Shown here: positions 1 to 11,956 of the stretch, piece after piece
Position numbering within the stretch: position 1 is the first letter of the stretch
Layout of the letters: each line of letters starts with the position of its first letter
Source of the DNA: Candidatus Tectimicrobiota bacterium
Lineage (GTDB): Bacteria > JACPSX01
NCBI GenBank assembly: GCA_016193065.1
Contig: JACPSX010000019.1
Span: 1 to 12,134, forward strand
DNA: 12,134 nucleotides
Direction of reading: 5' to 3'
Position numbers and translations under genes: made by a program
The notes under the pieces: generated by a model
What the model was told of the DNA's origin: nothing
Seen by the model: the letters and a program-made list of their open reading frames with translations, nothing else
Databases searched by the model: none

Positions 1-323
1 CCTTCTTCGTCAGGTCAAGCCTTCCAACCAAGCAGCTTTTCTGCCAAAGCCATGCCGGCTATCAGTTTCAATCCCTTCTTCGCCAGGTCAAGCCTTCCAA
101 CGCCAACGATCCCAGCCAAGCTGGGGGAAACTCCTACGGTTTCAATCCCTTCTTCGTCAGGTCAAGCCTTCCAACGAAGAACCGGTCCCGGTCACAATCG
201 CTCAACACCGCGTTTCAATCCCTTCTTCGTCAGGTCAAGCCTTCCAACTCCGTCCTTGTCGCGTTCTGGATCGGCTGGGAATGTAAGTTTCAATCCCTTC
301 TTCGTCAGGTCAAGCCTTCCAAC
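1..323 (-). CRISPR. CRISPR array, five repeats visible, continues beyond the left edge
   Basis: A 37-base repeat occurs at 1-28 (partial, cut by the window edge), 65-101, 139-175, 212-248 and 287-323. The last three full copies are identical. The copy at 65-101 has one change (T to C at 83). Spacers are at 29-64 (36 bases), 102-138 (37), 176-211 (36) and 249-286 (38), and none visibly matches elsewhere in the window. On the minus strand each repeat starts GTTGGAAGG and ends GGGATTGAAAC. The terminal ATTGAAAC is the common 8-base 5' handle of type III crRNAs, so I infer minus-strand transcription, the same direction as the cas genes. The copy at 287-323 would then be the first repeat. The array lies downstream of the cam1-like gene. 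Confidence 0.97.
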
Positions 324-415: not shown

Positions 416-1093
416 TCAGGCTTTCCTGTAGCTAGTGACGACCAAGGCTCTTTGAGTCCCGGGAATCGGCTTGTTGTTCGCATCGAACTCCGAGGCGATG
501 TACTGGCTGTCCACCCTGAGGTCATCGGCCGCCATCAATGCGGCAACGGACATGATGGCCGTCCCCCCGGTCAGGTCCACGACCATCGCCCTCTCGTCCA
601 GGCCCTTCGACTGGAGCCACCGAATCAGATGGGCGATGTCGTCCCTGATGCTCCTGAGGTTGGTGGGATCGACCGAGATCATCTTGTACCGATCCAGACC
701 AAGTCCGACCTTTTCCACTATCCCTTCCACCACCCGCTCCCTTTCGGTACGATTGGTCCCCAAGAACCCGCAGAACTCCGGTCGGAGCGCCCGGAACACT
801 TTGAGAACGGTGCTGTCGTCCTCGTGGCTCCTCAGGCCGACGGTAAAGATGACCCCGCGCCGGGGAATGTCGAGGGCCAGTGCCTCTCCAACCAGTGCCC
901 GGTGGCTGCGGATCATGTCCGCCCCGGAGGCGACTACGGCAACCAGCAACAGGATGGCCAGGGCGAGCAGCACGATCACCTCAGGCCTGTTGCCGAGGAG
1001 CACCGAGACGGCATTGGTGATGAGCTGAAAGCAGATGGCGACAATGGCGATCTCCAGCCACTTTTCGCGGAAGAAAGCCCTCAGGATCCTCAC
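416..1093 (-). CDS. cam1: Cam1-like membrane CARF protein
   Basis: This 225-residue protein has two strongly hydrophobic segments at about 14-33 and 38-58, then a soluble CARF-like domain from about 79 to the end. The CARF signature is DLTGGTAIMS at 173-182, the loop that contacts the cyclic oligoadenylate in this superfamily. Known Cam1 is a small CARF membrane effector that depolarises the membrane after binding cA4, and size and layout fit. Two segments rather than one is a difference from my memory of Cam1, so it may be a neighbouring family. The GTG start at 1093 has AGGAG five bases upstream and follows the csx15-like stop by 12 bases. It is the last gene before the array. A nuclease role is unlikely because no HEPN (R-x4-6-H) or PD-(D/E)xK motif is visible. 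Confidence 0.75.
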   Translation of the reverse strand: MRILRAFFREKWLEIAIVAICFQLITNAVSVLLGNRPEVIVLLALAILLLVAVVASGADMIRSHRALVGEALALDIPRRGVIFTVGLRSHEDDSTVLKVFRALRPEFCGFLGTNRTERERVVEGIVEKVGLGLDRYKMISVDPTNLRSIRDDIAHLIRWLQSKGLDERAMVVDLTGGTAIMSVAALMAADDLRVDSQYIASEFDANNKPIPGTQRALVVTSYRKA

Positions 1094-2504
1094 GACCGCT
1101 CCTCGCTACGCCGTCGAACCGGGTCTCGCCCGTGCGGCCCTGGCCCGTTCCCGGACCTCGTTCAGGTTGAGGATCTCCGCCACCTCGAACTGCGGGGGAT
1201 TGCTCCCCGCGACGGGCCGAAGCCGGAGGATGCTGGGAAAGTAGCCCATCCGCCCGTGGAGTTCCGCAAGAAGCGGCGCGGCGCCCACGTGCAGGCTTGG
1301 CGGGTTCACGAGGAGCGGGAGCGTCTGCCACTCCTCCGGCGTCAGGTTGACTTGGTCCACCAGCGCCCGCACCTGCTCGGCGAATGGTCGCTCGTGGCCG
1401 ACCTGCGCCCGGGCCTCGATCACCCGTTCCACCCCTGTAAACTGCTTTGGCCAGATCCTTTAACCCCGGGCCGTAGATCGGTGTTCCAACGCCGAATTGC
1501 TCCGAGGCCTCTCGGATGACCCTAATGTGCTCGTCGGAGGCCAGCGCGAAGACGGCCCGGGCGTACGGTCCACCAAAGATCGCTTCGTACTGCCGGATCT
1601 TAGCTACGACGGCAGTTACACCTTCGCCGTAGGGACCTCTTGTCTTGCACTCTACAATGCCGAGTCGCCCATTGCGCGCGACCATCACGTCTATCTCGCC
1701 CGTGAATCCCTTGATCCTTACCTTCCCCAGTACTTCGTCAAACAACTTGCACTCGTCGAGAGCGATGAGAGCGTAGGCCTCCACCCAGCCACCATTCAGG
1801 AACCCCCAGTCCGGTTCGCTGGTAGCCCGGATCCCGAGCTGCTCCTGCTTCCATGTCACCACATTGAGCTCCCCGAGCCTTTGGAGCGCCTGCAATCCCT
1901 TACCCTGGGGACAGAAAGAGAGCTGCGTTTCTTGCGACCACGGCTTCTGAGCTGTCTTCATCTCGATAACGACCTTCTTCAGGCAACGCTCATAAGCGCC
2001 GTCGTGGTTATCCACAAGCCATTTGACGAACTCCGTCCGTTCCCTTGGAATGGCGTTTGCGGATTGCACATCATCCATGAGTTCGCGTCCCGCCGCCCGC
2101 AACTGTGTCCCGATAGGAATCTTTACGTTGAACCGCTCTCGGGCAACCGGCTCCCCATTGGCCCCGAAGCGGATGAGCTCACTCGCCTCGGTGTTCACGT
2201 ACACCATTGGTGAAGCCGCCGCACGAGCCGCCTGATACGCGCCCAGCGACATGATCTTGGTTCCGCCGGTCAGATTCACGGTGACATGGGCATTCGAGTG
2301 CTTCTCGATCGCGCGGCCGCAATCGTCGCGCGCCTTCCGTAGGTCCCAGGGGTCCATCGTTAAAGGCTCAAGGACCTGCACTTTCGAGGTCCGCTCGTCC
2401 ATCGCCAACGCCCGGCGGAGATTCTCCGCCACCGACCGGATCCTGCGATCATCCGAAAGCAGGAATTGGACGCTCGTATAGCCCCCCGTCCCGGCAGCGA
2501 ACAC
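981..2504 (-). CDS. can2: Can2/Card1-like CARF plus PD-(D/E)xK nuclease (DUF1887 type)
   Basis: The N-terminal CARF domain carries [15 protein letters not shown] at 76-90, the cyclic-oligoadenylate-binding loop. The C-terminal nuclease shows GGWVEAYAL around Glu242, GEIDVMV with Asp272, and GIVECKT with Glu285 and Lys287, a full PD-(D/E)xK set. Can2/Card1 enzymes are cA4-activated nucleases that cut or nick DNA and RNA. Two ends look abnormal. The first residues match the family only from about [10 protein letters not shown], which begins upstream of the GTG start; GGAGGGAG lies six bases before an in-frame CTG at 2513. After about residue 358 (near 1431) the frame stays open for roughly 150 low-complexity residues that overlap csx15 and the start of cam1. 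That tail is probably not native. The normal protein would end close to residue 358. Confidence 0.8.
1106..1432 (-). CDS. csx15: Csx15-like CRISPR ancillary protein, N-terminus apparently missing
   Basis: The product is 108 residues from a GTG. I recognise stretches such as [33 protein letters not shown] and [18 protein letters not shown] as typical of the small Csx15 family, which accompanies type III systems. Related small proteins bind or degrade cyclic oligoadenylates, so a signal-lowering or buffering role next to two CARF effectors makes sense (inference). Csx15 proteins usually have about 20-25 further N-terminal residues. In this frame the codons just upstream read QFTG before ERVIE and then reach a TAA about 11 codons back. 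No good ribosome site precedes the GTG. The whole gene lies inside the out-of-frame tail of the can2-like reading frame, so an indel or deletion at about 1430-1490 probably removed its true start. Confidence 0.7.
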
Positions 2505-3570
2505 GGGGATCAGGTTGGGCTCCCTCCAGCGGCGTCTTCGGGTTGGACTTGAACCATTGCTGATCCGGATAGTTGATCACGTCAGGAGCGTTCTCATCCC
2601 AACGAAGAATGCGGTGCAAGTCTTGCAAATTGTCAGTCATCCCGTTGCGGTACCCGTCCACTCGCGCCGAAAGGAAGTCGGTCAAGGCCTTGTCCGTCAG
2701 GGGCTCACGCCAACCTCCACCCCACTGCCGATAGCGCAACTGGCGGTCGAGAGCCGTCAGCGCCGTGACCTCTATCTTCGCGCTACCCATGCCAATCGGC
2801 TTGCCCATCCCCACCTTGTGGCAGGTGTCGTCCCACAGAACGAGGCCAAAGAGCAGCAGGCTCAGACCGGCCTCGGCCAGGTTGTTGTATTCCACTTCAA
2901 ACGTGAAGAATGCCCCCGGCAGGACGGCCTCCACCGTCTTGTTCTGGCCGTCTTTCTGTGCGCGCATGCGGGGACCCTGCGGCCGGTGGTAGTAGAACTT
3001 CCGCCCGCGGATCTGCGGGATGGGATCCTCCGGCTTGGTCGAATAGAAGTATCTGTGACGGGGCTTCGGTGTACTGAGGACTGCCAGCGTGAATTGCCGA
3101 GTCTGATAACCCGATTGCGCGACTGCATCTTGCACGCTCACGTTACCCGAAAACACCTTGCCCCGGTTGAGCATTCCGAATAATCGGCACGCCGCGCACA
3201 GCGCACCAACATCTTCACAGGACTGGAATTCGCGGGGCAGTCCGTATGACACTGTCTGCCGCTCGTAGGCCAACCGGTTGGGCAATGTGAAGCATGAATT
3301 TGAGGCCGCCTCGACGACGGCGCGAATGGCCCCCTTGAGCGACGTACCAGGAACCATGGGCCTCCCCGTGTGGTCGCGGCACATTTCCAGGGTCTCATGC
3401 ATCCGCGCCCGGTCGGCGCTCCCCTCCCGGTACTTGGGCACAAACAGCGCCGTGCGGGTGGTCAGCTTACAGGAGATGCGCCCACTCACGCCTTCGAACC
3501 TGTCATGAAACCGCACGGCCTCACGGACTGGTCCGCCGCCGGACAATCGCACAAATCCGTAGGGATTCAT
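2449..3570 (-). CDS. cas7: Cas7-like RAMP protein, TIGR03986 type (type III-D)
   Basis: This 373-residue protein begins MNPYGFVRL, close to the PYNFV start I know from TIGR03986-type CRISPR RAMPs. It has FVPKYREG (43-50), the RAMP core MVPGTSLKGAIR (72-83), a zinc-type ALCAACRLFG (124-132), GRKFYYHR (189-196) and a Gly-rich KPIGMGSAKI near 257-266. It would form one crRNA-binding backbone subunit. I see no clear match to the Csm3 catalytic Asp in the usual place before the PGTSLKG loop. The ATG at 3570 overlaps the csx19 stop (ATGA). It is shorter than the 600-plus residues I remember for some members. The last 25 or so residues, after about TPLEG (346-350), look like out-of-frame can2 sequence. 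Its end overlaps the can2-like frame by 56 bases, so the true C-terminus may have been lost or shifted. Confidence 0.8.
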   Translation of the reverse strand: MNPYGFVRLSGGGPVREAVRFHDRFEGVSGRISCKLTTRTALFVPKYREGSADRARMHETLEMCRDHTGRPMVPGTSLKGAIRAVVEAASNSCFTLPNRLAYERQTVSYGLPREFQSCEDVGALCAACRLFGMLNRGKVFSGNVSVQDAVAQSGYQTRQFTLAVLSTPKPRHRYFYSTKPEDPIPQIRGRKFYYHRPQGPRMRAQKDGQNKTVEAVLPGAFFTFEVEYNNLAEAGLSLLLFGLVLWDDTCHKVGMGKPIGMGSAKIEVTALTALDRQLRYRQWGGGWREPLTDKALTDFLSARVDGYRNGMTDNLQDLHRILRWDENAPDVINYPDQQWFKSNPKTPLEGAQPDPRVRCRDGGLYERPIPAFG

Positions 3571-5013: not shown

Positions 5014-5925
5014 TCAAGCCGGCAGCAGAGCAGCAATGTGTTGCGTGATGAAGTCTCCTATTGGGTTGGCCTCGGGCCAGCCGCGCTGGAGATACACGGT
5101 CAGATCTCTAGGCTGAGTGAAGTCTACCGCCGCAATCTGCACGTCCACGAGGTGGCAGCACCCCAGCCCGCGTGATCGGATGCCGCCCAGCGGGATCATC
5201 CCTTCCATGAATTCCTGCAAACCCAATGCAATCAGCCCCAGGTCACGCTCGGTTGGATTCTCCAACGTCATGCTGAAAGTGAACTTGGTTTGCGCCGGGA
5301 CGATCTCATAGTCAAACTTGATCTGCTCTACCGCCCGTTCGCTGTCACGATCGATGCCCACCCCGTCCCGAATCTGCGTCGTTTCGGCCCAGGGCTCGAT
5401 GACAGGCAGGTCGTGGAAGCGCGCGGCTGAGGCGAGGTGAACGGAGCCGAACGTCTTGCACGTGTCGCACAGGTATTCGGCCAACAGATCGAGCAGGTGA
5501 GCCGCATTCAACTCCACGCCTATCCACCCCCCGCGCCGCAGCGCCCGCAGCGCCTCGCGCTCTCTCTGAGCTACAACGTCCTCTCCAACGGCCAGCGCGA
5601 GGCCACGGCTGGCGGCTTCGCTCACCATTCGGTACTTTTCCGCGAGGTCTTCGTTCATCGAGAGGCAGGGGTTCGCCCTGTTGAGCGCACAGGTGGCAAA
5701 TCCGGGCAAGTTCGGCACAAGCCTTTCCACCCCCGCCCGGAATGCGCCCTTGAACGAGGAGCCTGGAATAACTGGCCGTCCGATGCCATCGCGCACGATG
5801 GGGCTGTCGGTTACGGTGGATGCCTCCCGGCCGCCACCGATGTGCAGTGCGGTATCGAGAACCAGGGTGCCAGTAAACCGATGGCGGGACCGGAGGTGAG
5901 ATCGATCAAGGGGGTGGATTGCCAT
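5014..5925 (-). CDS. cas7: Cas7/Csm3-like (Csx7-like) RAMP protein with retained catalytic Asp
   Basis: The product is 303 residues. ALHIGGGREA (26-35) opens the RAMP fold. Asp40 in STVTDSPIVRDG aligns with the Csm3 cleaving Asp (IDNPVIRD in Csm3), followed by PVIPGSSFKGAFR (51-63). EYLCDTCKTFGS (150-161) gives the usual cysteine pair, RDGVGIDRDSERA (186-198) the conserved loop, and GGIRSRGLG the Gly-rich motif. The ATG at 5925 has a strong AGGAGG five bases upstream. A gap of 156 bases separates it from the second small subunit, more than most junctions here, so it may have some independent expression, though I see no clear promoter. It starts the second Cas7 block of the operon. It is predicted to coat crRNA and cut bound RNA. 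Confidence 0.88.
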   Translation of the reverse strand: MAIHPLDRSHLRSRHRFTGTLVLDTALHIGGGREASTVTDSPIVRDGIGRPVIPGSSFKGAFRAGVERLVPNLPGFATCALNRANPCLSMNEDLAEKYRMVSEAASRGLALAVGEDVVAQREREALRALRRGGWIGVELNAAHLLDLLAEYLCDTCKTFGSVHLASAARFHDLPVIEPWAETTQIRDGVGIDRDSERAVEQIKFDYEIVPAQTKFTFSMTLENPTERDLGLIALGLQEFMEGMIPLGGIRSRGLGCCHLVDVQIAAVDFTQPRDLTVYLQRGWPEANPIGDFITQHIAALLPA

Positions 5926-6081
5926 GCTGTCCTCCTGTCCTACAGCAATTGTGAAACAGGTCCCTTCACTCTATCTCTGTACCTTTCGGGAGCACCTTCT
6001 CTGATCTTCCTGAAGTATCATTGCGGAGTGTCGCTTCCACCCTCGTGCGTCTCCTTCTTTAGCTCGTCGCCGACTCCGTCG

Positions 6082-6510
<429 letters not shown>

Positions 6511-6515
6511 TCATG

Positions 6516-6974
6516 TCAGGCCTCCCGCTTGCGATACATGAACTCTGCGGCCAGGTGCTTTACAAATTCGCGGCACAGATCCAGGTGAACCCGGCGAGGG
6601 AGGTCGGCGTCTAGATCAGCAGCGTGCGCACGCTCGTCGTTCACGATCTCGTCCGCCTTCTGGCGGAGCGATTCAAGCACCGCGATGACTTCCCGCCCTA
6701 CGCTCTCCTTGGCCCAGCCATGGCTACGGGCATCGCGCCCGATCTGTTTCTTAAGGAAATCCGTGATGTCTGACACCTTGTCGGTGGTGTAAGCCAGATT
6801 CTCAAGACTGCGAATCTGGGCGTTCCTGAGAGAGGTCTTCGTTAGCCGCTCGGCCAGGATGCGGGGACGGGCATCCTCGAGTTGCTGATCACTGGCCCGC
6901 GCAATCGCCGCACGCACTGCCACACGAAGCAGAGCCTTGCGGTCCTGCTGGCTGAATCCAGTTTTCTCGCCCAT
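6516..6974 (-). CDS. cas11: Cas11-like small subunit, first copy
   Basis: The product is 152 residues from the ATG at 6974. An ATG at 6983 would add MRS but has AAAGG only one base away, whereas the later ATG lies eight bases after AGGA. The protein is charged and predicted all-helical, with no membrane or catalytic motif. It shares the pattern LRNAQIRSLENL (49-60) and LCREFVKHLAAEFM (133-146) with the next gene, so the two are probably paralogues. Size, helical nature and position after csx10 fit the small subunit (Cas11/Csm2-like) of a type III-D complex, though I have no specific family signature. It starts 13 bases after the csx10 stop. It could instead be an uncharacterised III-D accessory protein. 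Confidence 0.65.
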   Translation of the reverse strand: MGEKTGFSQQDRKALLRVAVRAAIARASDQQLEDARPRILAERLTKTSLRNAQIRSLENLAYTTDKVSDITDFLKKQIGRDARSHGWAKESVGREVIAVLESLRQKADEIVNDERAHAADLDADLPRRVHLDLCREFVKHLAAEFMYRKREA

Positions 6975-6987
6975 CGACCTCATCCTT

Positions 6988-8187
6988 TCACAGTTCTCGC
7001 TGCAGGAAATAAGAATGAAACGGATCGCAGGCCGTCATTCGGCCGAACCCCTCCGCCCGCCGGTCGCCGACGCTCTCGCGCTCGATTTCTTGCAGCCGGT
7101 CGATCACCGGTTTTCCATCGTAGCCCGGGGGCAGGCGAAAAAGTAGGACGGAGCCACGCCCTAAAGCCCATGTATCAGGCTTGGGCAAGTTCAGCGCCGC
7201 ATTCCAACCCGGCACAACAGCGGCGCTCAGGACACTGCGACGCCGATCCGCCTCACGGGGTAATTTGAAGTCGTCCGCCTTTATCCCGTCCAATATTGGC
7301 TCACCAGCGGGATCGTGTAGGGCAAGGTGGCTTTGCAGCGTTAACGAGAAATACTCGCCTTTCGGTTGACGCTCGAACAGGCCCCACAGAGTTCGCGCGG
7401 CTTCATTTAATGCGGCCCACCGATCAGCAATGGTCTGCCTTTCGGCCGGGGCTGCCCCCCACCCAGCTACAGACAACTGCCCCAACCCCCGGCTGCGTCC
7501 ATAGCCCACGGCGATTCGCTGCCGGTATCCGGCCACCTCGATCAACTTGGAACGCAATTCCTCCGGCAGAGTAACCACGCCACGGAAGAGTACGTCCTCA
7601 TGGACATCGCTCTCCTCGATGACTTCATGCGAAAACAGCATCCCGTGCGCCGCCGTTCCGGAGGCCCGCTCAATCGCAGTGGTGGTGATTGTTCGCTTCC
7701 GCACGGTCACCCGCCGAAACCCCTCTAGCGATGTGTAATAACCTGACTCCAGGCGGTCCCGTCTTTCACGACGTCCGACGCTCCTGCAGTCTGGGCAGTA
7801 AAGCCAGCCATTGTGCTCCAGCGGGTCGGGCTGTTCCATTTCACTTGCCAGCTCAAACCGGAGCAGCCCGTCCGTGAGGCTCGTAGATTCGTGATTGCCG
7901 AAGCGCTTGCACGCTACCGCTGTCGCCGGCATCAGATGTGCCAGACCATGGTGATCACTCGGGATAGGGAGGAAATCCGAAAAACGGACGACCTCAGACA
8001 GAAACAGGTCCCTGAAAGTCGGCTCTTGCGACCGCTCCGGAACGCCGGCGAGGTACAAGTCGGCCAATGCGCCCCGGACGGAGCTAGCGGGCAGATAGTC
8101 GAGCGTCGGCGCAAACTGTTCACTTGCGCGCCGCCGGTGTAGCGCCAGGGGAGACTCGGCTTTCAGCGTCAGCGTATCAGCGGTCAT
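6988..8187 (-). CDS. csx10: Csx10, Cas5-like subunit of type III-D
   Basis: The product is 399 residues, within or slightly below the family range. Key stretches are LDYLPASSVRGALADLY (29-45), a RAMP loop; MPATAVACK (86-94) followed by YCPDC (130-134), a likely zinc site; TAIERASGTAAHGMLFSHEV (170-189), a signature I associate with Csx10; and AVGYGRSRGLGQL (226-238), the Gly-rich loop. Csx10 is the III-D Cas5 equivalent, expected to hold the crRNA 5' handle and sit beside Cas10. The ATG at 8187 overlaps the stop of the preceding cas7 as ATGA, which fixes the start; an upstream extension to 8304 lies wholly inside that gene. The C-terminal part (about 285-399) is a second, less conserved RAMP-like half. 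No break is seen. Confidence 0.88.
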   Translation of the reverse strand: MTADTLTLKAESPLALHRRRASEQFAPTLDYLPASSVRGALADLYLAGVPERSQEPTFRDLFLSEVVRFSDFLPIPSDHHGLAHLMPATAVACKRFGNHESTSLTDGLLRFELASEMEQPDPLEHNGWLYCPDCRSVGRRERRDRLESGYYTSLEGFRRVTVRKRTITTTAIERASGTAAHGMLFSHEVIEESDVHEDVLFRGVVTLPEELRSKLIEVAGYRQRIAVGYGRSRGLGQLSVAGWGAAPAERQTIADRWAALNEAARTLWGLFERQPKGEYFSLTLQSHLALHDPAGEPILDGIKADDFKLPREADRRRSVLSAAVVPGWNAALNLPKPDTWALGRGSVLLFRLPPGYDGKPVIDRLQEIERESVGDRRAEGFGRMTACDPFHSYFLQREL

Positions 8188-8930
8188 GGCTGCGCCTCCG
8201 CATCGTCCCTGTAAAGCGCCAACGCCTCGACGTTGGCTAGCTGGCGCTCGACGGGGACCTGTCGTCCACCCACGATCACGTTCCCCGGCAAAACGAATAC
8301 ACACTCCCCCGCACCGCGACTCGCCCCGCCGCCCAGGGTCCCAACCGACTTCAGGCCTGCGAAGAGCAGGACCAACTCGTAGTACACGTCCGGAGCGTCG
8401 GCCAAGCTAACGGGGCTCAGCCGCAACCGCCCAATCAATGCCGGTCTGGCTTCATACGTGAGCCCTTCGGCGGTGAACTCGCTCGTGAACAGCCGCGCCT
8501 CCGCTGCCAGGCCGCGTGTCCGGCTCAGTTGGACTTGGGTCCGAGCAATTGTCTGGCCGAATACGGCCCGACTCTCGTGGTTAGGACGGAGCCCCTCTAC
8601 CCACTCTTCGATCAGGCGTGCTGATTGCCAGCGGAGGTCGGTACCCTGCCCTGGCGCGCCGAAGATCCTGCAAACCAGGCAGGTGTCCCGGTGCCGCACC
8701 ATCTGCCGGGCATGAGGCGCGCGGCAGTCGCCAATCCCATGCAAGGAGGCCAGCGCCTCGCATGCCGAGCGGACTTTACCCTTCAGGGTGCTTCCCGGAA
8801 TGTAGGCCAGCCCGTCCCGTCCCTTCACCACCGTGCGATTCACCATCCCACGCGAAAATCCTGTCCCGATGTGCATTGGGCCGCGCGTCTGGACGATGAG
8901 GCTGGGTAACTCGATGGATGTCGGCTGCAT
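8184..8930 (-). CDS. cas7: Cas7/Csm3-like RAMP protein, no Csm3-type catalytic Asp
   Basis: The product is 248 residues. I chose the ATG at 8930, which has GGGGGAG four bases upstream; the GTG at 8933 is too close to it. GPMHIGTGFSRG (17-28), AYIPGSTLKGKVR (42-54), DTCLVCRIFGAPG (82-94) and SVGTLGGGASRGAGE (195-209) are the standard Cas7 loop, cysteine pair and Gly-rich motif. Where Csm3 has its cleaving Asp (IDNPVIRD), this protein reads MVNRTVVK, so it probably binds crRNA without cutting target. It lies ten bases after cas10 and overlaps csx10 by ATGA. Its place beside the Cas10 and Cas5 genes matches the first Cas7 gene of III-D loci. Confidence 0.87.
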   Translation of the reverse strand: MQPTSIELPSLIVQTRGPMHIGTGFSRGMVNRTVVKGRDGLAYIPGSTLKGKVRSACEALASLHGIGDCRAPHARQMVRHRDTCLVCRIFGAPGQGTDLRWQSARLIEEWVEGLRPNHESRAVFGQTIARTQVQLSRTRGLAAEARLFTSEFTAEGLTYEARPALIGRLRLSPVSLADAPDVYYELVLLFAGLKSVGTLGGGASRGAGECVFVLPGNVIVGGRQVPVERQLANVEALALYRDDAEAQP

Positions 8931-8940
8931 CACTCTCCCC

Positions 8941-10347
8941 CTACTCCTCAGGCAACACGAATTGGTAAGCCTCGATCAAATCAGCGAGCGCAGTTGTATG
9001 GTCGATCCTTGGCGGGTTATTGTCCCGCCGCCATGGCGGCAGGGCCTGGTCACCGTCGCCAAACGCTCTATAGAACTCATCGAGGGCGTCGCGTTGCTCC
9101 TTCCCGATGCGGCCGCCAACCTTGACCCAGCGATATATCGCGTCTGCCTGCGAATGAAATAGGCCCTCGTACAGATATTGAAGCTGACTCCGGGGGAACC
9201 TCGCTTTCTTGAAAGCCTTCACACACTCAAGGAGGGTTCGCGCCTGGTTCAAGGTGTACGGCCTTTGCGTTAGCCGTATCTGGCGGTCTCCGCGAGGGAA
9301 CACAAAAGATTCCTGCGTGAGCACCTCTTCGCGCAGCGTATTCAAATCGCTGCTGCCAGCAGCCGTGACGACCATAAAATCCAGCGAGCCCGTACGGTAT
9401 CCCTCCTCGGCACAGCGCTGCTTTGCTCGTTTGAGCAACTGGCCAGCCAGGCTATGGCAAGCGGCCATCGGAAAACCTGCGTGAGCCAACACGACAGCCG
9501 TCCCCAGCGTAAGGGGCTTTTCATCGGGCAGGTGTCCCGCCCTCAAGGCCTCTCGGGAATCCCGTTCAAACGTCGCCGTTATCTCCAGTGCAACCGATAG
9601 GGCCATATCTCCGGCTGTAACCAGCATCAGGACATCCCTCACCGTTTTCTGAATCAGTTGATCCAGCTTGTCGGCAAAGGCCCCGTACTCCTCTGCACCT
9701 GCGAGCTGCTTCAGCCGCTCGCCGATACTATTCCCGTCCGAGTACATGAAGCCGATATAGCCGGGGGGCCGCGCGACTGCCCCGAGAGCATTCAAGTCTT
9801 CCGGCGCGTTCACATCCCGGTTTCGGTCGAATGCCTGCCTCTTGGCGTAGCATGAATGACAGATCGCCGACTGATCTAGGTGCGAGACCCTCGAGGCGGG
9901 ATGGCGCTCGCAGGCCGCGCATGGCTGCGTATACGATTCGATCCCTGGCAACAGCCGGCGGGCTTTCTCATCCTTCGCCTCTCGCAGTTTGAGCCATGCC
10001 ATGGCCACCCGCTCCCCAAATCCTTCGGTCTTGGTTGCTGGCGCCAGGCGCATCGGCGCACCAGTGATCGATGCGGTCAAGGCCTTGTGGCCATACGAGG
10101 CTTGAACCACGTTGATGATGTGTTTGGCCTTCGCTTCGGAGGGTGCCAACAACACCGCCGAGCCTCCCGCCGCGAAGACAATCTCACAGTCGGGACACAC
10201 CGGTCGAACCACACGCCCCAATTCCGCCCTGCTGTTTAACTCGGTGAGCAACCAGCTCGCCCCTCTCACCTCACGGAGTTTGTCGGTGGCGAACACGTAC
10301 TCCTTGATCCGGTCTGTGTCAAAGCAGACAAGATATTCATCACTCAT
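8941..10347 (-). CDS. cas10: Cas10, HD-less type III-D large subunit with altered GGDD site
   Basis: The product is 468 residues, short for Cas10 because there is no N-terminal HD nuclease, as is common in III-D. FDTDRIKEYVFATDKLREVR (9-28) begins Palm 1, with GGSAVLLAP at 61-69. Zinc-finger cysteines are at 143, 146, 163 and 166. Palm 2 starts with GFMYSDGNSIGERL (199-212), which keeps the conserved Asp. The expected GGDD reads AGDM (245-248), followed after only three residues by VALEITATF. Family members normally have a longer strand and a Pro-Ala segment here, so about ten residues including the second catalytic Asp seem deleted. LTLGTAVVLAHAGFP (279-293) and the helical C-terminal domain are intact. 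The ATG at 10347 has AGAGGAAGGA six bases upstream. It is the structural large subunit; cyclic-oligoadenylate synthesis is doubtful. Confidence 0.92.
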   Translation of the reverse strand: MSDEYLVCFDTDRIKEYVFATDKLREVRGASWLLTELNSRAELGRVVRPVCPDCEIVFAAGGSAVLLAPSEAKAKHIINVVQASYGHKALTASITGAPMRLAPATKTEGFGERVAMAWLKLREAKDEKARRLLPGIESYTQPCAACERHPASRVSHLDQSAICHSCYAKRQAFDRNRDVNAPEDLNALGAVARPPGYIGFMYSDGNSIGERLKQLAGAEEYGAFADKLDQLIQKTVRDVLMLVTAGDMALSVALEITATFERDSREALRAGHLPDEKPLTLGTAVVLAHAGFPMAACHSLAGQLLKRAKQRCAEEGYRTGSLDFMVVTAAGSSDLNTLREEVLTQESFVFPRGDRQIRLTQRPYTLNQARTLLECVKAFKKARFPRSQLQYLYEGLFHSQADAIYRWVKVGGRIGKEQRDALDEFYRAFGDGDQALPPWRRDNNPPRIDHTTALADLIEAYQFVLPEE

Positions 10348-10450
10348 AAGGATTCCTTCCTCTTGGCCTCAAGCCCCTCGGTTGCGTTCGGTGGACTATG
10401 GGATTGAGCCCCTCAAGTACCTCTATATTTTTCCCATCGAACACGCTCAT
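10340..10450 (-). other. 36-codon open frame ahead of cas10, start resembles GyrB/ParE
   Basis: In the gap between cas6 and cas10 an ATG at 10450 opens a 36-residue frame that ends eight bases inside cas10. It begins MSVFDGKNIEVLEGLNPI and keeps HR soon after. This resembles the start of type II topoisomerase B subunits (IxVLEGLxPVxxRP). After that the likeness fades. It could be a small gyrB-like relic, a short upstream ORF coupled to cas10 translation, or chance. The region before its ATG has GGTGAG about nine bases away, a moderate site. Confidence is low. Confidence 0.3.
10404..10416. promoter_or_regulatory. perfect 5-bp inverted repeat upstream of cas10
   Basis: TTGAG CCC CTCAA is a perfect inverted repeat about 57 bases upstream of the cas10 start. 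A related GCCCCTCGG occurs again at 10372-10380. It may be a small operator or RNA hairpin, or simply part of the gyrB-like short frame that it overlaps. Confidence 0.25.
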
Positions 10451-10542
10451 GCCCGTAACTCACCGGCGTAAGGGTTCCGGACAGGAGCCCGCGCGGTATT
10501 CCTGGCGCTTGATTGTCGAATAACGCGCGCAGGCGCAGGCAC

Positions 10543-10556
10543 CAGAGCGAACTCTG
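10543..10556 (-). terminator. small UUCG-loop hairpin just after cas6
   Basis: On the transcript this reads CAGAG UUCG CUCUG, a five-base-pair stem with a UUCG loop, seven bases past the cas6 stop. It has no following U-run, so it is not a standard terminator. It could protect the cas6 mRNA end or attenuate transcription into cas10. Confidence 0.3.
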
Positions 10557-10563
10557 CTCTCCC

Positions 10564-11616
10564 TCACCTTGAATCGGGCAGAGCCAGCTTGAATAGGCCC
10601 AGCCCGAAGACGGTGCCCTTCCCCACGTGCACCCATTCTCCCAATCGGAGGAGCGGCAAGAATTCATCCAGCGCGCCCCGGAACTGGGCCGAGCCAACGA
10701 AGCCCCCCATGAGCATGGTCGTCTCCTGCCGGGCCGAGTACCGCTGCCACTCTACCCACCGGAGATCCTTTGCCACAGCCTCAACCGCCTGCGCCCGCTG
10801 GATGAGGCCCCGGAAGTCCAGGTCCAGGCGCTGGCCGCAATGGAAATAGGAGAGGGTGGAGAGGCGCCGCAGGAGGTTTCGGATGAGAATGTGGAACTCC
10901 AGGTCGGAGGCCAGGCGGTTCTCGAACTTGAGGCGGGTCGGGGTCAGGAACTCAATGCCCAAACGACCGTGATCGTGACCGTGGTCGTGATCGTCATCGT
11001 GATCGTGGGCGTGATCGTTGGGGTGGTCGTGGACGGCGAACAGCCGTGATCGTGATTCGTGTTCGTGGCCGTCCGAGGCTTCGGCGCCGGTGCGGATGCG
11101 GAAGTCGTCGCGCAAAACCCTGCGGTCGCCTGCGTAGATCATCGCCCACCCATCCGGCCCGCGATTCCTGGTCTCTCCGCGGACCTCGGCCAGGCGGTAC
11201 CGGCCGTGCTGTCGGCCGAGCCCGGTCCGACCCAGTTCCTCGAAGGCCACGATAAAGTAGGGTAGGTAATCAATCCCCCGCCCGATGAGCGTCAGGCCGA
11301 ACTCCAGGGAGTCGCCGGCCGCGTAGTTCCGGCGCCCATTCAGGGGCGGCTCGATGACGAAAGGATGGGGCGCGGCCGGGTACTTCCGGAGCATTTCGGT
11401 GTCGGCCGCCGGGGGCGTCTCGAAGACGTACTGGTACGGGCACTGCTGGCGGACCAGGCACCGGTCGCACTCCCCGTGCCGAACCACGCAGACCGCCCGC
11501 TTGAAGGCATGCCCGAATCCACCGCGCAGGGCAGATCCCGCGTACTCGGGGATCTGCAAACGCTCCTCGGCCTCGATCACGAATTTGAACTTGCCGACCC
11601 GGAAGCCATCCAGCAC
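10564..11616 (-). CDS. cas6: Cas6-family pre-crRNA endoribonuclease with His/Asp-rich insert
   Basis: The product is 350 residues. I chose the GTG at 11616, nine bases after GGGAG; a TTG at 11637 would add seven residues. LQIPEYAGSALRGGFGHAFK (21-40) is the typical opening of the PF10040-type Cas6 proteins. Cysteines 43, 50, 53 and 59 (VCVVRHGECDRCLVRQQCPY) match a cluster usual in this group, perhaps a metal site. The C-terminal VGKGTVFGLGLFKL is the Gly-rich RAMP loop. Its role is cutting the array transcript at each repeat; the catalytic residues cannot be assigned by eye. Residues 196-216 are almost all His and Asp (nine His, eight Asp), encoded by an imperfect hexamer repeat, which I do not know from other Cas6 proteins. 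It is the first gene after the promoter and is 216 bases from cas10. Confidence 0.85.
   Translation of the reverse strand: MLDGFRVGKFKFVIEAEERLQIPEYAGSALRGGFGHAFKRAVCVVRHGECDRCLVRQQCPYQYVFETPPAADTEMLRKYPAAPHPFVIEPPLNGRRNYAAGDSLEFGLTLIGRGIDYLPYFIVAFEELGRTGLGRQHGRYRLAEVRGETRNRGPDGWAMIYAGDRRVLRDDFRIRTGAEASDGHEHESRSRLFAVHDHPNDHAHDHDDDHDHGHDHGRLGIEFLTPTRLKFENRLASDLEFHILIRNLLRRLSTLSYFHCGQRLDLDFRGLIQRAQAVEAVAKDLRWVEWQRYSARQETTMLMGGFVGSAQFRGALDEFLPLLRLGEWVHVGKGTVFGLGLFKLALPDSR
10968..11033. repeat. imperfect CGTGAT hexamer repeat inside cas6
   Basis: About eleven hexamer units, four of them exactly CGTGAT and others such as CGTGAC, CGTGGT, CGTCAT and CGTGGG. On the coding strand they read ATCACG-type units giving alternating His and Asp. 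Two more CGTGAT units lie at 11045-11056. The pattern suggests slippage-driven growth, always in frame. Confidence 0.85.
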
Positions 11617-11956
11617 CGCAGGGATCTCCCTAAACAAAAACGCCGCACTTCCCCCGCAGGGAAAATACGGCGACGCCTCCCCCTCCCGACTGACCCATCG
11701 CGTCCGTCCTTTGATGCGACAAGGTGGCCCGATGGTGGGTCGTGAAAATACGCTGTCCCACAGGAGATGTCAACTGCTTTATCCGCATTTGTAGTCTTGT
11801 ACGCGTTTGTACCCCCTCCCGGCAGGGAGAGATCCTATGGCGGATCCCCTCTGAGAGGTATGCGGAGGACCGGACACCTGGGATCCGTCCAGACCGTCAG
11901 GGTGACGCCCCACACAAAGACGGTAGAGCTGCCCCGAGAGTAAGACAGCACCGCCC
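11617..11956. other. non-coding region upstream of the cas operon
   Basis: About 340 bases with no supported gene on either strand. It holds the predicted operon promoter, three TTGTA units just upstream of it, and two copies of GAAAATACG (11661-11669 and 11744-11752), the second covering the -10 box. Plus-strand frames here are short and lack family features. The right part may be the degraded upstream portion of the PIN-domain gene whose end follows; AAPRVRQHR in one frame just before the recognisable part is suggestive. Confidence 0.6.
11745..11773 (-). promoter_or_regulatory. sigma70-type promoter of the cas operon
   Basis: On the minus strand a perfect TTGACA (11773-11768) is followed by 17 bases and TATTTT (11750-11745). 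Transcription would start near 11738, leaving about 120 untranslated bases before the cas6 GTG. Three TACAA units (11811-11807, 11801-11797, 11793-11789) lie just upstream and could bind a regulator. Confidence 0.65.

What the first reader, a model, noticed from the sequence alone, without database searches (positions are those of the whole stretch)
8941..10347. Cas10 cyclase site looks broken while three cOA-dependent genes are kept
Cas10 has AGDM where the family has GGDD, and only three residues separate it from VALEITATF, where I expect a strand and a Pro-Ala segment. This looks like a roughly ten-residue in-frame deletion that removes the second Asp. Yet can2, csx15 and cam1-like genes, all dependent on cyclic oligoadenylate, follow in the same operon. 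Either the effectors are now silent, another Cas10 in the genome supplies the signal, or the altered palm makes a different product.
Basis: partly seen in the sequence, partly recalled or inferred. Interest (0 to 1): 0.65.

Follow-up and report, generated by a model that had tools for sequence, protein, structure and literature searches.

The report
Assembly-collapsed Cas10 cyclase in III-D locus
A bacterial CRISPR immune locus appears to have lost the enzyme site that makes its alarm signal, but the same kind of missing-sequence fault occurs in core metabolic genes across this draft genome, so the break is more likely an assembly error than biology.

Summary
In about 65 other III-D Cas10s it aligns with the turn after GGDD. 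The closest syntenic relative (L107) reads …IGGDDVLLITAADIAIEV…; the window reads …TVRDVLMLVTAGDMALSV…. A net 23 residues (69 nt) are missing just upstream: helix end, loop, strand β2 and the GGDD turn. As written, the cyclase cannot work. Two of the three 'kept' genes are not intact: can2 lacks its start codon and first CARF strand, and csx15 lacks about 27 N-terminal residues including the cA4-binding loop. Only the Cam1-like gene is whole. No second Cas10 was found. The contig comes from a fragmented draft genome. An unbiased frame-switch scan finds the same kind of loss genome-wide (10 strong sites without N in 503 kb of coding sequence; 1 in 1.41 Mb of controls), including nuoL/nuoM, argB/argD and an acetolactate synthase. 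Most likely the assembly collapsed sequence and the organism has an ordinary III-D cOA system. Genuine recent decay of the signalling arm is the main rival, because all three window lesions hit that arm. Only raw reads can decide.

The parts
8941..10347 (-). cas10 (III-D type, no HD domain), 468 aa, open frame lacking the GGDD hairpin
   Evidence: Foldseek top hit III-D Cas10 8s9t_C
9730..9744 (-). YSDGN, first metal-binding Asp motif of palm2 (D204), retained
   Evidence: invariant D in alignment A4
9628..9645 (-). junction TVRDVL where 23 residues (69 nt net) including the GGDD hairpin are missing relative to L107
   Evidence: AlphaFold2 model lacks strand beta2
9604..9615 (-).
9811..9831 (-). 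short zinc-finger to palm2 linker, about 18 residues shorter than L107; may be natural variation
2511..2529 (-). junction where the stop of the TIGR03986 cas7 and the start plus beta1 of can2 are missing (about 61 nt net against L107)
1421..1447 (-). junction where the can2 stop and the csx15 start plus about 27 residues are missing
   Evidence: independently flagged by the frame-switch scan (L083 1434)
1430..2520 (-). can2 (CARF + PD-(D/E)xK) without its start codon and first CARF strand; nuclease residues retained (ORF by GTG 981-2504)
1106..1432 (-). csx15 (cA4 ring nuclease or sponge family) lacking its N-terminus
416..1093 (-). Cam1-like membrane + CARF gene, full length
   Evidence: PADLOC CARF_2M 7-209 against 6-193/200
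10564..11637 (-). cas6, intact
8184..8933 (-). cas7 (Csm3-like), intact
6988..8187 (-). csx10 (Cas5 of III-D), intact
6516..6983 (-). cas11 (Csm2-like)
6082..6507 (-). second small cas11-like subunit
   Evidence: 46% identity to a syntenic gene of L107
5014..5925 (-). cas7 (Csx7-type); D40 aligns with catalytic D33 of III-Dv Cas7-2x
   Evidence: paper PMC11026444
4037..4996 (-). cas7 (Csx7-type), intact
   Evidence: 63% identity to L107
3567..4040 (-). csx19
   Evidence: TIGR03984 above cut-off
2449..3570 (-). TIGR03986 cas7; about 24 residues of out-of-place tail because its stop is missing
1..323 (+). CRISPR array, cut by the contig end; only array of this repeat found in the genome

Best explanation
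The missing Cas10 cyclase hairpin is most likely a collapse of sequence in a fragmented draft assembly, as are the missing can2 start and csx15 N-terminus. The organism most likely carries an ordinary type III-D system. In that system crRNA-guided RNA binding would switch on a GGDD Cas10 that makes cyclic oligoadenylate (probably cA4), which Can2 and the Cam1-like protein obey and Csx15 removes. Shown: the sequence as deposited lacks the hairpin; relatives have it; the same kind of loss is spread through core genes of this assembly. Inferred: that this particular loss is of that kind, and the normal activity of the real locus.
For: A frame-switch scan calibrated on each genome found 16 same-strand switches with no stop codon in 503 kb of coding sequence of this genome. 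Ten of them are strong (over 150 nt overrun) and not at N runs. The controls gave 0 in 346 kb, 0 strong in 379 kb and 1 strong in 686 kb (Poisson P about 7e-12). Lesions lie in genes a cell with these pathways should not have broken: nuoL/nuoM and argB/argD, a frameshifted acetolactate synthase, TRAP permease, CofC-like and acyl-CoA synthetase genes (gene names read by eye). Other contigs hold short N runs. The truncated genes are otherwise free of decay: no internal stops or frameshifts, conserved residues kept. Long-standing loss does not predict this. The syntenic relative L107 has intact GGDD and can2.
Against: The window has three such losses in about 11 kb, several times the average elsewhere (P of three or more given at least one is about 0.04 for an assumed rate of 0.5 per 12 kb). 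All three hit the signalling arm (about 0.03 by chance, a grouping chosen after seeing the data). The cas10 loss is in frame. Thirty housekeeping proteins, about 15,000 aa, show no net internal loss of 15 aa or more, though that sample was biased to long intact frames.
Confidence: 0.63

Rival explanations
1. Genuine, recent decay of the cOA arm. An in-frame deletion removed the cyclase hairpin but kept Cas10 as a scaffold. Can2 and Csx15 then lost their N-termini, leaving a complex that only cuts target RNA with Cas7, plus one orphan membrane CARF gene.
For: All three clear lesions fall in signal-making or signal-handling genes and remove the nucleotide-handling element of each: GGDD, CARF beta1, and the Csx15 beta1-alpha1 loop holding the S9/H11 residues (paper PMC13148439). 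The backbone genes are intact with tidy junctions, and a Cas7 catalytic Asp is kept. [quoted passage not shown]
Against: The same kind of loss occurs in core genes genome-wide. Three nearly simultaneous clean deletions with no point decay are needed. The Cam1-like gene is intact.
Confidence: 0.28
2. Effectors are driven by another cyclase in the cell, a second Cas10 in trans.
For: About 14% of the genome is missing from the assembly.
Against: Searches of the genome with Cas10 palm2, III-D Cas10 and Cmr2 models find only this gene. Only one array with this repeat was found. Can2 and Csx15 themselves look incomplete.
Confidence: 0.03
3. The altered palm still makes a nucleotide product with a changed active site.
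For: The first metal Asp (D204) remains, and one Asp (D238) sits in the GGDD register.
Against: Strand beta2 and the hairpin that holds the second metal site are gone in the model but present in the model of L107. Palm mutation abolishes cOA in III-Dv (PMC11026444).
Confidence: 0.02

Closest known systems
Type III-D (III-D1) CRISPR-Cas, e.g. the syntenic locus DSAR01000497.1 (L107) and Synechocystis III-D/III-Dv (8bmw, 8s9t)
   Same: Gene set and order cas10-cas7-csx10-cas11-cas11-cas7-cas7-csx19-TIGR03986 cas7-can2; Cas10 without HD domain; best fold matches are III-D Cas10s.
   Different: Relatives keep GGDD and a full-length can2; the window sequence does not.
Subtypes III-C, III-G, III-H, III-I (cyclase inactivated or lost)
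   Same: Cas10 without a working cyclase site; target RNA cutting would remain here.
   Different: Those are stable lineages; [quoted passage not shown] Here the subunits are plain III-D and CARF genes are still present.
Can2/Card1, Csx15 and Cam1-like cA4-responsive proteins
   Same: Family matches over the parts present.
   Different: Can2 lacks its start and CARF beta1; Csx15 lacks about 27 N-terminal residues.

Membership tests
Type III-D CRISPR-Cas | Csx10-type Cas5 and Csx19 present | tested here: met
   Csx19 TIGR03984 37.1 bits (cut-off 35); Csx10 TIGR02674 156.8 bits over full length, just under its 177.3 cut-off; PADLOC Cas5_IIId 2e-46
Type III-D CRISPR-Cas | III-D type Cas10 without HD nuclease domain | tested here: met
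   Frame starts at palm1; closest by fold 8s9t_C
Type III-D CRISPR-Cas | Several Cas7 subunits, at least one with the catalytic Asp | tested here: met
   Cas7 D40 aligns with D33 of Cas7-2x (PMC11026444)
Active Cas10 cyclase | xGDD motif on the beta2-beta3 hairpin of palm2 | tested here: not met
   Motif and beta2 absent; about 65 other III-D Cas10s have it, the one exception being a chimeric frame
Active Cas10 cyclase | First palm2 metal Asp (xxDGN) | tested here: met
   YSDGN, D204
Can2/Card1 | Complete CARF domain with beta1 and motif I | tested here: not met
   Start and beta1 absent against L107 and others
Can2/Card1 | PD-(D/E)xK nuclease residues | tested here: met
   WVEAY...EIDVM...ECK retained
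Csx15 | N-terminal beta1-alpha1 loop with the cA4-binding Ser/His | tested here: not met
   About 27 residues absent against L161 and L163; role of the loop from PMC13148439
Cam1-like CARF membrane effector | Transmembrane helix or helices plus CARF over full length | tested here: met
   CARF_2M 7-209 against 6-193 of 200; helix count by eye, not predicted
Active cOA signalling | cOA made on target RNA binding | not testable with these tools
   Needs purified complex or cells

The most novel reading that the evidence does not exclude
The losses are real. The locus is a snapshot of a III-D system shedding its cOA arm, with Cas10 kept as a cyclase-less scaffold for Cas7 RNA cutting, the nucleotide-handling element deleted in Can2 and Csx15, and a Cam1-like gene not yet lost: an intermediate on the route proposed for III-G and III-H.
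Probability: 0.27. Interest if true: 0.5.

Novelty: not a real feature. Interest (0 to 1): 0.15.

Why it matters
If taken at face value, the locus would be catalogued as a cyclase-dead III-D variant with orphan effectors. The genome-wide scan shows that such calls from a single draft genome need a check of the assembly first. If the losses prove real, it would be a rare intermediate in the reductive loss of cOA signalling.

Tried and rejected
AGDM as a degenerate GGDD: rejected by alignment to relatives. A roughly ten-residue deletion: the net loss is 23. Second Cas10 in trans: not found. My first test of assembly quality, spans of 30 housekeeping proteins, suggested no background losses; it was biased because only long intact frames were chosen, and was superseded by the unbiased scan. 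A tblastn test for frame changes was too small to decide. Self-targeting as a reason for decay: three of the four complete spacers have no other match in the genome (the fourth was not tested). One spacer has no exact match in viral contigs. Close relatives of this Cas10: direct scans found none; L107 came through the TIGR03986 protein. L136 as a second natural GGDD-less case: it is a chimeric frame.

Full report
What is there. The window is a whole contig (12,134 bases) of a 2.9 Mb draft genome in 294 contigs, 86% complete, the only held member of its phylum. It carries a type III-D locus on the minus strand: cas6, cas10, cas7, csx10, two cas11-like genes, two csx7-type cas7 genes, csx19, a TIGR03986 cas7, can2, csx15 and a Cam1-like CARF membrane gene, followed by a CRISPR array cut by the contig end.

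The observation. AGDM, however, is not the cyclase motif. Aligned with III-D Cas10s from many phyla, VLMLVTAGDMALSVALEI is the strand after GGDD plus the next turn and helix. The decisive comparison is L107 (DSAR01000497.1, a Chloroflexi draft genome), found through the TIGR03986 protein. It has the same gene order and 35-63% identity over the complex subunits. Its Cas10 reads TKEQVFTALQDHGSPRDGIAPFEIVLIGGDDVLLITAADIAIEVALTI; the window reads IQKTVRDVLMLVTAGDMALSVALEI. The net difference is 23 residues (69 nt), upstream of AGDM. In the gapless register GGDD becomes VRDV. Of about 65 distinct III-D Cas10s surveyed, all but one chimeric frame keep an xGDD-type motif. AlphaFold2 models agree: L107 has beta1-alpha1-beta2-GGDD-beta3-alpha2, while the window protein goes from alpha1 straight to a short beta3, beta2 being absent. 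Foldseek places the window protein with III-D Cas10.

The neighbours. The statement that three effectors are kept does not hold. can2 reads ...[12 protein letters not shown]... with no start codon and no first CARF strand, where L107 has MAKTMIALVSAQRMQNIIPVFQKG; the upstream cas7 has lost its stop, and about 61 nt are missing. csx15 begins at [10 protein letters not shown], where relatives have about 27 more residues including the NFxHPLT segment. In the solved Csx15 proteins that beta1-alpha1 loop carries the Ser/His used in cA4 binding and, in one of them, cleavage (PMC13148439). can2 has no stop before csx15. The Cam1-like gene is full length by profile coverage. The backbone subunits show no comparable loss and their junctions are tidy. 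A Cas7 catalytic Asp is present.

Real or artefact. The first test looked at spans of 30 housekeeping proteins and saw no internal losses. That sample was biased towards long intact frames, and its own tables showed two frames running far past their ends. These proved to be nuoL running into nuoM, with the end of one and the start of the other missing, and argB running into argD with its end and stop missing. A frameshifted acetolactate synthase followed. An unbiased scan was then made on about 579 kb of this genome (about 20%): a coding-frame model trained on each data set, counting same-strand frame switches where the upstream frame has no stop. It found 16 sites in 503 kb of coding sequence. 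Four of the 16 lie at or near N runs, and ten are strong with no N. Two complete genomes gave 0 and 2 (none strong), and the loci from other genomes (mostly drafts) gave 8 (one strong). For ten strong sites against the control rate, P is about 7e-12. Inspection shows broken TRAP permease, CofC-like, flippase-like and acyl-CoA synthetase genes (named by eye). The scan independently flagged the can2/csx15 junction in the window. It cannot see in-frame losses such as the one in cas10.

Weighing. A genome-wide fault that removes tens of bases without leaving N explains the window at no extra cost, and explains why the truncated genes otherwise look healthy. Against it, three losses in about 11 kb is several times the average, all three fall in the signalling arm, and the cas10 loss is in frame. 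I put assembly collapse at about 0.63 and genuine decay of the cOA arm at about 0.28. The other readings (a second Cas10, a changed product) have little support.

If real. Loss of the cyclase together with CARF genes is known for III-G and III-H, and about 97% of Cas10s are thought active (PMC12669027). This locus would then be an intermediate with plain III-D subunits, able to cut target RNA but not to signal. Csx15, Can2 and Cam1-like proteins are linked to cA4 in the literature (and general knowledge), so the intact ancestor, or the real locus if the assembly is at fault, would most likely signal with cA4.

Noticed in passing
L165 (G000:C21) about 2545; L175 (G000:C31) about 4869; L099 (G000:C17) about 4845: Sequence missing without N at nuoL/nuoM, argB/argD and inside an acetolactate synthase gene of the same genome.
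   Followed up: yes
L085 2218, L096 6583, L232 2249, L181 12182, L084 914, L174 1843: Further frame switches without a stop codon in G000 contigs; several lie in conserved genes (TRAP permease, flippase-like, acyl-CoA synthetase, CofC-like).
   Followed up: partly
L086 (G000:C4, 2774 bases): A whole contig of this genome reads as N, apparently withheld or masked.
   Followed up: no
L096 158-2170 (G000:C14): A SecA-like protein matching only to position about 605 of 789, with a TolC-like gene right after it; either a short SecA2 or another collapsed gene.
   Followed up: no
L136 8984-10840: A chimeric frame in which a Cas10 runs into a TIGR03986-like cas7; looks like another draft-assembly fusion or a deletion.
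   Followed up: partly
window 10347-10564: A gap of about 217 nt between cas6 and cas10, one of only two sizeable intergenic spaces in the operon (the other is 5925-6082); a possible promoter region.
   Followed up: no
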